A stretch of DNA of 64,000 nucleotides from positions 1 to 64,000 of the forward strand of contig JAURVI010000052.1 of the NCBI GenBank assembly GCA_030655515.1. The letters are read 5' to 3'. Made by a program: the position numbers and the translations under genes. This stretch comes from Polaromonas sp. Lineage in GTDB: Bacteria; Pseudomonadota; Gammaproteobacteria; Burkholderiales; Burkholderiaceae_C. The notes beneath the pieces were generated by a model. It saw only the letters and a program-made list of their open reading frames with translations, made no database searches and was not told where the DNA came from. Every line of letters begins with the position of its first letter. The stretch's first letter is position 1. Positions 60,575 through 64,000 of this stretch are shown in pieces.

Positions 60575-61155
60575 CGTGAGAACCGAGGTGTATGACGAGG
60601 TAAAAACGTGCGGGGTCGCTCTGTGGGTGAAAACGCCGGTTCAGACCGAGCAGGAAGTGTGGGCCGAACTGGGCCGCCGGTGGTGAAAACGCCGAAGTAT
60701 CTTGTAACGATTCCCAACCCGGCCAGTATCAAAAAGCCCCTGCCGACACTTGACGGGCTGGTTCCGGCGCGGGCGGATGAAGGGAATTTCCGCGCGCCGG
60801 CTGCTTCCATGCGGAATCCGGCTGCTTACGCCAGTCAACCTGCGGCTCTTTGGATATGAGTGCAGGGCGCTATTGTTTATATAGCATCTTCGGCACCCCG
60901 GCGGGCGCTTCATGGGCTTGCCGTCCCGGCCACGGCCACGCGGATGCGGCAGGGCCGGCACAGCAAAAAGCCGCAACAAATCGTTGCAGTTTGTTGCTTG
61001 TGCGCTGTCGATCAGTCCCTTGGACTGGCAAACGCTGACAATGCTCACCATGGCGGCGTACCGCCGAACCGTCGGATACCATCGACTGGTGTCTTGACGG
61101 AGTACCCATAAGCAAGCAAGTCCGCCAATCAGCCAGCAATCAAGGAGGTGTCCCC
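60575..61155. other. Gene-free region between the DUF1631 gene and dinD
   Basis: No gene is supported. It marks the border between core genes and the accessory operon. A small inverted repeat GCTAT-N7-ATAGC lies at 60869-60885. A strong ribosome site AAGGAGGTG (61142-61150) ends the region. I found no LexA box of the CTGT-N8-ACAG form, so damage induction of dinD is not evident. No attachment-site repeat or tRNA was seen. Confidence 0.5.
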
Positions 61156-62025
61156 GTGAGTGCCAAGCAAATAACACCGGTTGCCGCCGGATTCGAGGCG
61201 CTGAAGCAAACCAACGAGCACAACGCCGAATACTGGCGTGCCCGTGATCTGCAGCCCCTGCTGGGCTACACCCAATGGCGGCGGTTTGAGCAGGCTATCG
61301 AGCGCGCCATGGCCTCCTGCGAAACCTCCGGCAACAACCCGGACAACCATTTTGCCGGCGTTGGCAAAATGGTCGGTCTGGGCTCAGGCAGCCAGCGGCC
61401 CGTCAACGACTACCATCTCTCCCGTTTTGCTTGCTACCTCATCGTCCAGAACGGCGACCCCCGCAAACCCGAAATTGCCCAGGCCCAGCAATACTTCGCC
61501 GTTCAGGCCCGCCGCCAGGAGCTGAGCGACCAAGCTGCCGCAGATGTGGAAAGGCTTGAACTGCGCAAGCAGACCGCGGAAGAGTTCAAAGCCCTGTCGG
61601 GCGCTGCGCAAGACGCGGGCGTGCAGAGCAGGATGTTTGGCGTCTTTCATGATGCGGGCTACAAAGGCCTGTACGGCGGCCTGGGGCGCGACGCCATCAA
61701 ACAGCGCAAAACCATTGCCGGCAAAGACAACCTGCTCGACCGCATGAACGCCACCGAACTGGCCGCCAACCAGTTTCGCATGACGCAAACCCGCGACAAG
61801 CTGGCGCGTGGCGTCAGCGGCCAAACACAAGCCATCCAGACGCACGAGCAGGTGGGCAAAGAAGTGCGCGATGCCATCAAGCGCATCGGCGGCACGCTGC
61901 CGGAAGACATTCCACCGGCCGAGCACATCAAGGACGTTGAAAAACGCCTCAAGCAAGCGGCACCCAAACTGACGCTGGACGAGCGCGAGGCCGGTGGCTT
62001 GCTGGGGGAGGAGAAAAAACCATGA
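61156..62025 (+). CDS. dinD: DNA-damage-inducible protein D homologue
   Basis: A 289-residue DinD. FEALKQTNEHNAEYWRARDL and LLGYTQWRRFEQAIERAM form the BRO-N-like N-terminal domain; LSRFACYLIVQNGDPRKPEI and FAVQARRQELSDQ the middle; a helical C-terminus follows. E. coli DinD inhibits RecA-made filaments; homologues are often found near phage or defence genes. Start is GTG 61156 with the best ribosome site in the window (AAGGAGGTG, 5-base spacing). It overlaps the DUF2130 gene by four bases, so the two are coupled. Confidence 0.9.
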   Translation: MSAKQITPVAAGFEALKQTNEHNAEYWRARDLQPLLGYTQWRRFEQAIERAMASCETSGNNPDNHFAGVGKMVGLGSGSQRPVNDYHLSRFACYLIVQNGDPRKPEIAQAQQYFAVQARRQELSDQAAADVERLELRKQTAEEFKALSGAAQDAGVQSRMFGVFHDAGYKGLYGGLGRDAIKQRKTIAGKDNLLDRMNATELAANQFRMTQTRDKLARGVSGQTQAIQTHEQVGKEVRDAIKRIGGTLPEDIPPAEHIKDVEKRLKQAAPKLTLDEREAGGLLGEEKKP

Positions 62026-63323
62026 CCGAACCCACCATCATCTGCCCCAACTGCCGGGCAGAAATCAAACTCACCGAGTCGCTGGTCGCGCCGCTGATTG
62101 CATCCACCCGCCAGCAGTTCGAGGTGCAACTGGCCCAAAAGGACAGCGACATCGCGCAGCGCGAGCAGGCCATGCGCGAGAAGGAAAAAGCGCTGACGGA
62201 TGCAAAACGTGACCTGGACGAACAGGTGGCCGACCAGGTCGCGAGTCAGCTCAAAACCGAACGCGCGCGCGTAGCCGCAGAAGAAGCCAAAAAGGCCAAG
62301 GCGGCATCGGCCAACGAACTGGAAGCCAAAGCCCGCGAACTGGCTGAACTGCAAGACGTGCTGAAAGTGCGCGACGCCAAACTGCTTGAGGCCCAGCAGG
62401 CCCAGGCCGAGGTCATCAAAAAACAGCGTGAGCTGGATGACGCCCGGCGCGAGCTGGACCTGACCGTTGAAAAACGCGTGCAAGACGGCTTGAGCGAAGT
62501 GCGCACCCAGGCCCGGCGCGAAGCCGAAGACGGCATGAAGCTCAAGGTGGCCGAGAAAGACCAAACCATCGCTTCCATGCAGCAGAAGATTGAAGAGCTC
62601 AAGCAAAAAGCTGAACAAGGCTCCCAGCAACTGCAAGGCGAAGTGCAAGAGATGGAACTGGAAAACCTGCTGCGCGCCAAGTTCCCGTTTGACCTGATCG
62701 AGCCCGTGCCCAAGGGCGAGTTTGGCGGCGACGCCCTGCACCGCGTCAACAGTCAGGGCGGGGTGCCCTGCGGCAGCATCTTGTGGGAATCCAAACGCAC
62801 CCGCAACTGGAGCGACGGCTGGCTGCCCAAGCTGCGTGAAGACCAGCGCAGCGCCAAGGCCGAAGTCTGCGTGCTGGTCAGCCAGGTGTTGCCCAAAGGC
62901 GTGGAAACCTTTGACCTGGTGGATGGCGTGTGGATCACCTCCCCACGCGTGGCCATCCCCGTGGCCATCATGCTGCGCCAGGCCCTGCTGCAGTTGAGCC
63001 AGACCCGCGCCTTGAGCGAAGGCCAGCAAACCAAGACCGAGATGGTTTACCAGTACCTCACCGGCCCGCGCTTCAGGCAGCGGGTGGAGGCGATTGTGGA
63101 GTCCTTCTCATCCATGCAGGACGACCTGGACAAGGAGCGCAAAGTCATCATGAAACAATGGGCCAAGCGCCAGGAGCAGATTGAGCGCGTGATGGGTGCG
63201 ACGGTGGGGATGTATGGGGATTTGCAGGGGATTGCGGGGAAGTCGTTGCAGGAAATTGAGGGACTTAGTTTTCAAGCAATTGAATCGAGCGCTACAACTC
63301 AGAAAGTGTTGACTCAAGAATGA
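62022..63323 (+). CDS. DUF2130-family coiled-coil protein, candidate PD-(D/E)xK nuclease
   Basis: A 433-residue protein. Residues 8-11 (CPNC) suggest half a zinc ribbon. About 30-215 are a long charged coiled coil. The C-terminal DUF2130 domain holds FPFDLIEPVPKGEFGGD (D237) followed by SILWESKRTRNW with E256-S-K258. A D...E-x-K arrangement at this spacing is what PD-(D/E)xK nucleases such as RmuC show; whether it is catalytic here is my inference, since the family has no accepted function. It overlaps dinD and the SIR2-like gene by four bases each. Confidence 0.82.
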   Translation: MTEPTIICPNCRAEIKLTESLVAPLIASTRQQFEVQLAQKDSDIAQREQAMREKEKALTDAKRDLDEQVADQVASQLKTERARVAAEEAKKAKAASANELEAKARELAELQDVLKVRDAKLLEAQQAQAEVIKKQRELDDARRELDLTVEKRVQDGLSEVRTQARREAEDGMKLKVAEKDQTIASMQQKIEELKQKAEQGSQQLQGEVQEMELENLLRAKFPFDLIEPVPKGEFGGDALHRVNSQGGVPCGSILWESKRTRNWSDGWLPKLREDQRSAKAEVCVLVSQVLPKGVETFDLVDGVWITSPRVAIPVAIMLRQALLQLSQTRALSEGQQTKTEMVYQYLTGPRFRQRVEAIVESFSSMQDDLDKERKVIMKQWAKRQEQIERVMGATVGMYGDLQGIAGKSLQEIEGLSFQAIESSATTQKVLTQE

Positions 63324-64000
63324 ATACTAAAACTCACTGTCCCTATAGACAAACCAAAAACCTACAAGATGCACTCACCTCTGATAAGGTGAGAGTGGCT
63401 TTTTTGCTAGGCGCAGGCTGTCCAGTATCGATTCGCATGAAGGAGGGTGTTTTTTGTACCGATGAAACTGCGGCTGGCTCAGCGCCTTTGATTCCGGACA
63501 TTGCTGGCCTAACCGGATTAATAAAAGCAGAACTCAGGGGCAATGACAAGTACAAGACCAGTTTTGAGGCGGTACTAAAGCGGCTTGATGGCGACGCACC
63601 TGAAAGTAAGGTAACCATAGAGGACATTCTGAGTCATATTCGTTCACTACAAGATGTGATTCGCGAGGGCAGCATTGATGGGCTGGATAAGGCAAACCTC
63701 GCCGCACTTGACATCGCAATATGCGACATCACCACCAAGAAGGTGAACGTTCAATTGCCCCAGGCACGAACTGCGTATCACCAGTTCGCAACGTGGATTG
63801 GTGGAGTACCTCGCGCAAACGCGGTGGAAATATTTACGCCGAACTATGACTTGCTTCTTGAGCAAGGGCTTGAAGCTGGGCAAATACCTTATTTCGATGG
63901 ATTTGTTGGCTCCAAACAAGCCTTTTTTGATTTGACCTCAATGGAGGAAGAGGGTAAAAATGCATTGCCTGACCGTTGGGCGCGGTTGTGGAAAGTTCAT
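63320..64000 (+). CDS. SIR2-like NAD-binding protein, N-terminal part (runs off window)
   Basis: An open frame of 227 codons without a stop, continuing past the window. FLLGAGCPVSIRM has the NAD-binding G31-A-G33 loop of SIR2-like defence proteins, PLIPDIAGLTGLI follows as in that group, and TPNYDLLLEQGLE (N175, D177) matches the T-x-N-Y-D motif. The last codons, LWKVH, reach the place where the family has its catalytic His-Gly-Ser. Base composition is clearly lower in GC than dinD and DUF2130. Start overlaps the DUF2130 stop (ATGA). In known defence systems such proteins deplete NAD on phage infection. Confidence 0.82.
   Translation, partial: MNTKTHCPYRQTKNLQDALTSDKVRVAFLLGAGCPVSIRMKEGVFCTDETAAGSAPLIPDIAGLTGLIKAELRGNDKYKTSFEAVLKRLDGDAPESKVTIEDILSHIRSLQDVIREGSIDGLDKANLAALDIAICDITTKKVNVQLPQARTAYHQFATWIGGVPRANAVEIFTPNYDLLLEQGLEAGQIPYFDGFVGSKQAFFDLTSMEEEGKNALPDRWARLWKVH

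What the first reader, a model, noticed from the sequence alone, without database searches (positions are those of the whole stretch)
61156..64000. dinD - DUF2130 - SIR2-like operon: candidate undescribed defence system
Three genes are joined by two ATGA overlaps, so they are one translational unit. The third encodes a SIR2-like NAD-binding domain (GAG loop, TPNYD motif) of the type used in abortive anti-phage defence. The second is a coiled-coil protein with a possible PD-(D/E)xK site. The first is homologous to a RecA-filament inhibitor. Known SIR2 systems pair the domain with HerA, an Argonaute or other partners; I do not know one with DinD and DUF2130. The block sits at the edge of core genes, and GC drops in the SIR2-like gene, which suggests transfer.
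Basis: partly seen in the sequence, partly recalled or inferred. Interest (0 to 1): 0.87.

Follow-up and report, generated by a model that had tools for sequence, protein, structure and literature searches.

The report
SIR2-HerA defence nested in restriction operon
The three genes at the window's edge are the left end of an eight-gene anti-phage block: a known type of suicide defence (SIR2-HerA) sits inside a restriction-modification operon, with a little-studied, swappable nuclease-like gene at the front of the suicide unit.

Summary
In detail: dinD (61156-62025), DUF2130 (62022-63323) and a SIR2-like gene (from 63320) are joined by two 4-nt ATGA overlaps. The SIR2 frame stays open past the window (424 aa). 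The next genes, on the same strand, are HerA, a 69-aa KTSC protein, and type III Mod, YhcG/DUF1016 and Res. The effector is therefore a SIR2-HerA system, a known kind.

The closest DinDs sampled (76-80%) lie beside type III Mod with no SIR2 or DUF2130, so DinD belongs to the restriction operon. The low-GC SIR2-HerA-KTSC unit, with DUF2130, lies between DinD and Mod.

New points: KTSC follows HerA in 68 of 70 related loci with room for it. DUF2130, a predicted PD-(D/E)XK nuclease, lies directly upstream of SIR2 in 27 of 74. It behaves as a plug-in: two near-identical cassettes carry different DUF2130 subfamilies, and two others have lost it by deletion. DUF2130 also adjoins OLD/Gabija-like, RloC-like and type I R-M genes, or stands alone. 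No paper in the library searched names DUF2130 with SIR2. Verdict: new variant of a known kind; how DUF2130 acts is inferred.

The parts
61142..61148 (+). ribosome-binding site of dinD
   Evidence: AAGGAGG shortly before the GTG start, read directly
61156..62025 (+). dinD (289 aa, Bro-N domain); assigned here to the type III R-M operon further downstream
   Evidence: NCBIfam PRK11525.1 372.6 bits, cut-off 242; PADLOC PDC-S13 2.3e-111; DinDs 76-80% identical adjoin type III Mod (L239, L241) or a Mod remnant (L242)
62022..63323 (+). DUF2130 protein (433 aa): one CxxC, long coiled coil, PD-(D/E)XK nuclease-like core (about 204-325), helical tail; plug-in gene of the SIR2-HerA unit
63320..64000 (+). 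SIR2-like NADase gene, first 227 of 424 aa; it ends at 64594 outside the window. The same strand continues (window numbering) with HerA 64563-66497, KTSC 66510-66719, type III Mod 66764-68440, YhcG/DUF1016 68437-69645, Res 69603-72401
   Evidence: PADLOC SIR2 1.6e-121, HerA 6.5e-159, MTase_III 7.5e-210, REase_III 8.3e-203

Best explanation
The locus is two defence layers nested in one operon. The outer layer is a type III restriction-modification operon, DinD-Mod-YhcG-Res. The inner layer is a SIR2-HerA-KTSC abortive-infection unit, headed by DUF2130, placed between dinD and mod. Shown here: gene content, order, overlaps, families, intact catalytic motifs, the different GC of SIR2-HerA-KTSC, and the existence of each layer without the other elsewhere. 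Inferred: Mod marks host DNA and Res (with the YhcG nuclease and DinD as R-M accessories) cuts unmarked phage DNA. If the phage survives, the HerA ring ATPase engages its DNA and activates SIR2 to destroy NAD+, so the cell stops before phage release. KTSC is a fixed small component of the HerA-SIR2 unit, probably a nucleic-acid contact. DUF2130 is an exchangeable PD-(D/E)XK nuclease with a coiled coil that most likely supplies the trigger or DNA processing (recognising or opening particular phage DNA); it can be swapped or lost while the SIR2-HerA-KTSC core stays.
For: Order and families. DinD on type III Mod without a cassette: L239 (DinD 79%, 4-nt overlap with Mod 71%), L241 (76%, Mod there in two frames), L242 (80%, Mod remnant). 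DinD beside type I HsdM, HsdS or HsdR in six further loci. A second, decayed case of the nesting: in L011 a DinD remnant lies 86 nt before DUF2130 and a Mod remnant 51 nt after KTSC. GC contrast. KTSC directly after HerA in 68 of 70 loci with room; HerA after SIR2 in 72 of 74. DUF2130 directly upstream of SIR2 in 27 of 74. Closest solved SIR2 and HerA sequences (8w9l, 8wiv) share PDB entries. Swap: L017 and L018 are 94% identical from the end of DUF2130 through KTSC but carry DUF2130s of different subfamilies. Loss: L036 and L046 against L034 and L031. A near-full-length Mod follows KTSC after 49-85 nt in four other loci (L004, L005, L012, L026; 48 nt in the window), and after 0.75 and 2.1 kb, with other frames between, in L003 and L007.
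Against: No other genome was found with both an intact DinD and the SIR2 cassette; the full nesting is seen intact once and decayed once (L011). The genome is a draft (84.8% complete, 5.2% contamination). DUF2130 has GC like DinD and Mod (0.601), not like SIR2, so it need not have arrived with SIR2-HerA-KTSC. DUF2130 is absent upstream in 47 of 74 SIR2 loci. One DinD of 74% (L245, partial) has no Mod beside it. Nuclease, NADase and anti-phage activity were not tested.
Confidence: 0.72

Rival explanations
1. DUF2130 is an independent defence or mobile-element gene that merely lands next to other defence genes and does not work with SIR2-HerA.
For: DUF2130 stands without an adjacent annotated defence gene on a Mesorhizobium and a Bradyrhizobium plasmid, in a Helicobacter prophage record opened (7 such records matched) and relatives lie on 16 viral contigs (contexts not read). 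It adjoins OLD/Gabija-like, RloC-like, type I and type III R-M genes. In two Bradyrhizobium plasmids it lies about 1.5 kb after KTSC, behind another gene. SIR2-HerA-KTSC persists without it.
Against: Position is tight: all 27 lie directly upstream on the same strand, 5 with the start/stop overlap seen in the window. Two subfamilies about 25% identical occupy the same slot, and the pairing recurs with other SIR2 classes (L117, L294).
Confidence: 0.35
2. All eight genes act as one system in which the R-M part tells self from non-self and gates the SIR2 suicide effector in the slot before mod.
For: KTSC is followed within 85 nt by a near-full-length Mod in 4 of 74 other loci and within 2.2 kb in 2 more; the spacing is 48-52 nt in the window, L004, L005, L011 (Mod remnant) and L012. 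The same type of Mod-Res operon, often led by a DrmD-like SNF2 helicase, carries other suicide-type genes in that slot: DSR2 (L276), AbiU/AIPR (L280, L284), Schlafen AlbA_2 (L285).
Against: In 68 of 74 SIR2 loci no near-full-length Mod follows KTSC within 3 kb, and some Mod-Res loci have nothing in the slot (L281, L286, L288). Embedding for co-inheritance explains this as well. In L011 the R-M genes have decayed while DUF2130-SIR2-HerA-KTSC stays.
Confidence: 0.15
3. dinD-DUF2130-SIR2 is one undescribed three-gene system.
For: Translational overlaps; a DinD remnant before DUF2130-SIR2 in L011.
Against: An intact DinD is upstream in none of 74 other SIR2 loci (69 with more than 2.2 kb upstream). 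No DUF2130 or SIR2 in 19 DinD loci. HerA and KTSC, which are nearly constant, are left out of the proposal.
Confidence: 0.04

Closest known systems
SIR2-HerA two-gene defence (PADLOC SIR2/HerA models; PDB 8w9l with 8wiv; also 8j4u/8su9)
   Same: SIR2 NADase-type gene followed by a HerA ATPase, sequence motifs present; the best PDB matches for both proteins share entries
   Different: A KTSC gene follows HerA in nearly all relatives, and a DUF2130 gene often precedes SIR2. The one SIR2-HerA-citing paper whose passages I read for this, PMC11263360, names no KTSC in its main text
HerA-KTSC-endoDNase systems noted by Iyer et al. 2022 (PMC9503650, passages read)
   Same: HerA with a KTSC protein
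   Different: [quoted passage not shown] here a PD-(D/E)XK gene and the sirtuin stand together with HerA-KTSC
Type III R-M (Mod-Res) with YhcG and DinD accessories
   Same: PADLOC MTase_III and REase_III matches over nearly full length
   Different: Interrupted between DinD and Mod by a suicide unit
DinD beside type I R-M (Bibersteinia hsdS-dinD fusion, PMC4996451, passages read)
   Same: DinD as an R-M neighbour
   Different: Here it heads a type III operon

Membership tests
SIR2-HerA defence | SIR2-domain gene directly followed by HerA/DUF87 ATPase on the same strand | tested here: met
   32-nt overlap of the two frames if HerA starts at its first ATG
SIR2-HerA defence | SIR2 catalytic Asn and His | tested here: met
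   TPN175YD and H227 invariant in 20 of 20 aligned rows
SIR2-HerA defence | HerA P-loop and Walker B | tested here: met
   GTTGSGKST and LLIVLEEAH in the translation; PF01935 117.6 bits, cut-off 23.2
SIR2-HerA defence | NAD+ depletion and phage protection by a SIR2-HerA complex | not testable with these tools
   needs experiment
Type III R-M | Mod and Res subunits | tested here: met
   PADLOC MTase_III 7.5e-210, REase_III 8.3e-203; PF01555, PF04851
DinD | equivalog model above cut-off | tested here: met
   372.6 bits against 242
DinD | inhibition of RecA filaments | not testable with these tools
   stated for E. coli DinD in PMC10602874 (passages read)
PD-(D/E)XK nuclease superfamily (DUF2130) | D...E-x-K site on an alpha-beta core | tested here: met
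   [not shown]
PD-(D/E)XK nuclease superfamily (DUF2130) | DNA cleavage | not testable with these tools
   needs experiment
Hma (helicase, m5C methylase, ATPase) | m5C methyltransferase (HmaB) with helicase and ATPase | tested here: not met
   Hma definition from passages of PMC8565338; the methylase here is N6/N4 type (PF01555)
DISARM | DrmA/DrmB/DrmC genes | tested here: not met
   none is the best match of the seven genes scanned with PADLOC (KTSC was scanned with Pfam only); DrmD-like SNF2 is the best match only for genes of relatives, L003 and L276

The most novel reading that the evidence does not exclude
A modular suicide platform: type III R-M operons (led by DinD or a DrmD-like SNF2 helicase) hold a cargo slot before mod that takes interchangeable NADase or Abi effectors (SIR2-HerA-KTSC, DSR2, AbiU, Schlafen), with the R-M part as trigger. 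DUF2130 is a swappable nuclease module that sets what the effector senses, recruited in parallel by several unrelated defence systems.
Probability: 0.2. Interest if true: 0.82.

Novelty: new variant of a known kind. Interest (0 to 1): 0.55.

Why it matters
SIR2-HerA is usually described as a two-gene system (PADLOC models; PMC9503650, passages). Here its genomic form is mostly three genes (KTSC nearly constant) and often four (DUF2130). A PD-(D/E)XK gene that is swapped or deleted while the effector core stays 84-94% identical in DNA gives natural allele pairs (L017/L018, L034/L036) that make the question 'what triggers SIR2-HerA?' directly testable. It also gives a functional setting for DUF2130 and KTSC, and suggests that type III R-M operons host suicide effectors in a fixed slot.

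Tried and rejected
Rejected: one dinD-DUF2130-SIR2 system (DinD goes with R-M). Rejected: Hma (m5C methylase) and DISARM as names for the outer operon. Looked for the empty site with the flanking genes in 20 genomes of the family: the SNF2/SWIM gene was found in our own only, the DUF1631-type gene in 8 of 20 (our own and seven others at 32-43% identity), so no empty site was shown. A profile search of DUF2130 against PDB sequences gave only weak matches to coiled-coil stretches, and Foldseek alone gave no match at E <= 0.001; the fold case rests on the motif. SIR2 relatives in viral contigs: none confirmed. Searching for the paper behind 8wld/8woc by entry code gave nothing relevant. PMC9252829 was searched for six terms without a hit.

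Counting notes: the script counts 24 loci with DUF2130 because three low-identity matches (L023, L027, L074) end early; their open frames end 138-229 nt before the SIR2 match, giving 27. A repeat with a query of the second subfamily added none. The script also counts a Mod fragment in L011 as Mod; I do not. Of the 74 loci, L024 and L025 are near-duplicates (L025 left out of the tree). In one search the neighbours of 60 DUF2130 loci were listed; only neighbours picked by eye were scanned, so the counts are lower bounds. Named by resemblance, without a scan: the SIR2 of L169, the upstream HsdR of L121, the type I genes of L231, and the 603-aa gene of L287 and the AAA gene of L289, which are in no count of cargo. 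The SIR2-like look of the L123 neighbour was not supported by PADLOC (no match at 1e-10) and is not counted; L118/L119 (AAA plus subtilase) are not counted. L170's neighbour had no Pfam match. The samples include our own genome. Of the 19 DinD loci read, 18 are over the family cut-off and one (G536, L245) is below it; several stretches are short (3.9-4.5 kb).
Full report
What is there. The three frames are as described. Reading on in the same contig (L002 = contig 39, 58001-78000; window base = L002 base + 58000), the SIR2 gene is complete (424 aa) and overlaps a 644-aa HerA; then follow a 69-aa KTSC protein (PF13619, 79 bits, cut-off 25), type III Mod, YhcG/DUF1016 (PF06250, PF17761) and Res, all on the + strand, and an SNF2/SWIM-like helicase on the - strand. 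PADLOC gives SIR2 1.6e-121, HerA 6.5e-159, MTase_III 7.5e-210 and REase_III 8.3e-203.

Which known kind. The best sequence matches in the PDB are 8w9l for SIR2 (4.4e-91, residues 10-408) and 8wiv for HerA (3.7e-205); both sequences occur in entries 8wld, 8woc, 8wod and 8wof. So the effector is a SIR2-HerA system. Published work treats these as NADases, with SIR2 in a dodecameric arrangement (PMC11263360, passages read).

The conserved unit. One scan of bacterial and archaeal genomes gave 74 loci with a relative of this SIR2. HerA follows in 72 of 74 (in the other two, L058 and L072, the stretch ends); KTSC follows HerA in 68 of the 70 that have room (exceptions L016, L064). On annotated plasmids (360 records with some SIR2 match) I opened seven: the trio is complete in six (two Bradyrhizobium, Paracoccus, Sphingomonas, E. 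coli, Aeromonas) and KTSC was not found in one, where HerA is also short (Agrobacterium). Iyer et al. [quoted passage not shown] Of 13 papers in the library holding the word KTSC, two also name Sir2: that paper and PMC7824862, which I did not open.

DUF2130. It lies directly upstream of SIR2 in 27 of 74 loci: 9 of 16 with SIR2 at least 46% identical to ours, 18 of 29 at 40-46%, and 0 of 29 below 40%. A separate genome (L294) shows a DUF2130 of the second subfamily before a SIR2-HerA-KTSC closest to the below-40% class. In five loci the start/stop overlap with SIR2 is the one seen in the window. Four of the 27 (L017, L023, L027, L074) carry the second subfamily, about 25% identical to ours. On the SIR2 tree (74 rows including the window; quick method, SH-aLRT only) presence or absence needs 13 changes; starred branches force at least 5.

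Swap and loss. L017 and L018 are 94% identical over 3631 bases from the end of DUF2130 through KTSC, yet their DUF2130s belong to different subfamilies. L031 and L034 share upstream and downstream DNA with L036, and L034 with L046, at 84-89%, but L036 and L046 lack DUF2130 and keep only about 50 nt of its 3' end. This looks like gain, exchange and loss of a discrete module.

DUF2130 elsewhere. Sampling without reference to SIR2: over cut-off in 36 of 369 genomes (class) and 31 of 398 (phylum), our own included in each. Of 60 DUF2130 loci examined outside our own genome, by my sorting 16 belong to our subfamily, 21 to the second, 22 to more distant ones, and one is partial. A same-strand defence-type neighbour within 150 nt was found in at least 6 of 16 (L113, L116, L117, L121, L168, L169), 5 of 21 (L107, L112, L157, L160, L167) and 1 of 22 (L176) (L169 by resemblance): SIR2, OLD/Gabija-like ATPases, AAA_13/RloC-like, type I HsdR, an nSTAND3 protein and a DNA methylase. 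No background of random genes was measured; the distant subfamilies serve as a rough control. On plasmids (46 records matched; seven opened) it precedes an ATP-dependent endonuclease and a UvrD helicase gene (Aliarcobacter) and a methyltransferase-specificity pair (Chryseobacterium), or has no adjacent annotated defence gene. In metagenome protein lists, close relatives of both genes have the same longest-contig length (29125: P0015 and P0139; 4247: P0020 and P0126), which suggests, but does not prove, shared contigs.

DinD. In 299 genomes, 19 are over cut-off, our own included; 19 other DinD places were fetched more widely (18 over cut-off, one below). None has DUF2130 or SIR2-HerA in the stretch fetched. 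Six adjoin type I R-M genes (L229, L230, L231, L236, L238, L240; Pfam for ten neighbours of five of these, L231 by resemblance) and five adjoin type III-like Mod or Res (L234, L235, L239, L241, L242). The closest DinDs, L239 (79%), L241 (76%) and L242 (80%, followed by a Mod remnant), lie next to relatives of our own Mod (71% in L239, with a 4-nt overlap between DinD and Mod; Res 64%); a partial one at 74% (L245) has none. A dinD-hsdS fusion is in print (PMC4996451, passages read). Hence DinD is most simply the head of the R-M operon, and the DUF2130-SIR2-HerA-KTSC block lies between it and Mod. L011 (Candidatus Nitrotoga) looks like a decayed second case: DinD remnant, intact DUF2130-SIR2-HerA-KTSC, Mod remnant. 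The GC profile agrees for SIR2-HerA-KTSC (0.46-0.52) but not for DUF2130 (0.60), so DUF2130 may have a separate history.

The slot before Mod. Relatives of this Mod were found in 37 of 398 genomes; of 20 loci read more widely, 9 have a SNF2 helicase upstream. Between SNF2 and Mod lie DSR2 (L276, PADLOC 1.4e-143), AbiU/AIPR (L280, L284), Schlafen AlbA_2 (L285), genes not scanned (L287, L289), or nothing (L281, L286, L288). In three SIR2 loci SNF2 directly precedes DUF2130-SIR2-HerA (L003, L010, L026); in L003 it is DrmD-like (1.2e-208). Four of the 74 SIR2 loci have a near-full-length Mod 49-85 nt after KTSC and two more have one within 2.2 kb; the spacing in the window is 48 nt. Embedding of suicide genes before Mod is thus recurrent; whether it is functional coupling is open.

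Novelty. SIR2-HerA, type III R-M, DinD and YhcG are known. Not found in print: DUF2130 with SIR2 (0 papers) or DUF2130 in defence (the 3 papers holding the word concern other topics by title; not opened). The library holds open-licence papers only, so this is not proof of absence.

Noticed in passing
L002:14458-16941 (window numbering 72458-74941), - strand: SNF2 helicase with a weak SWIM match, convergent with Res, GC 0.70; found in no other of 20 family genomes at E <= 1e-100, so it may also be accessory.
   Followed up: partly
L276:1799-13787: SNF2-DSR2-Mod-YhcG-Res on one strand: a DSR2-type NADase embedded in a type III R-M operon.
   Followed up: partly
L118:4742-8072 and L119: DUF2130 followed by an AAA ATPase and, in L118, a subtilase-family peptidase (Pfam; L119 has genes of the same lengths), a possible defence pair.
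   Followed up: no
L013:2385-7050: HerA gene interrupted by about 1.5 kb of other sequence between SIR2 and KTSC.
   Followed up: no
L190 and L191: Two Bradyrhizobium plasmids with SIR2-HerA-KTSC, an AbiEi-type gene on the opposite strand, then DUF2130.
   Followed up: no
L311-L326; L189: DUF2130 relatives on 16 viral contigs and in Helicobacter heilmannii prophage records; no SIR2 relative was confirmed in the viral collection.
   Followed up: no
G000 contig 20, 61557-62651 (-): A second Mod relative (53%) elsewhere in the same genome.
   Followed up: no
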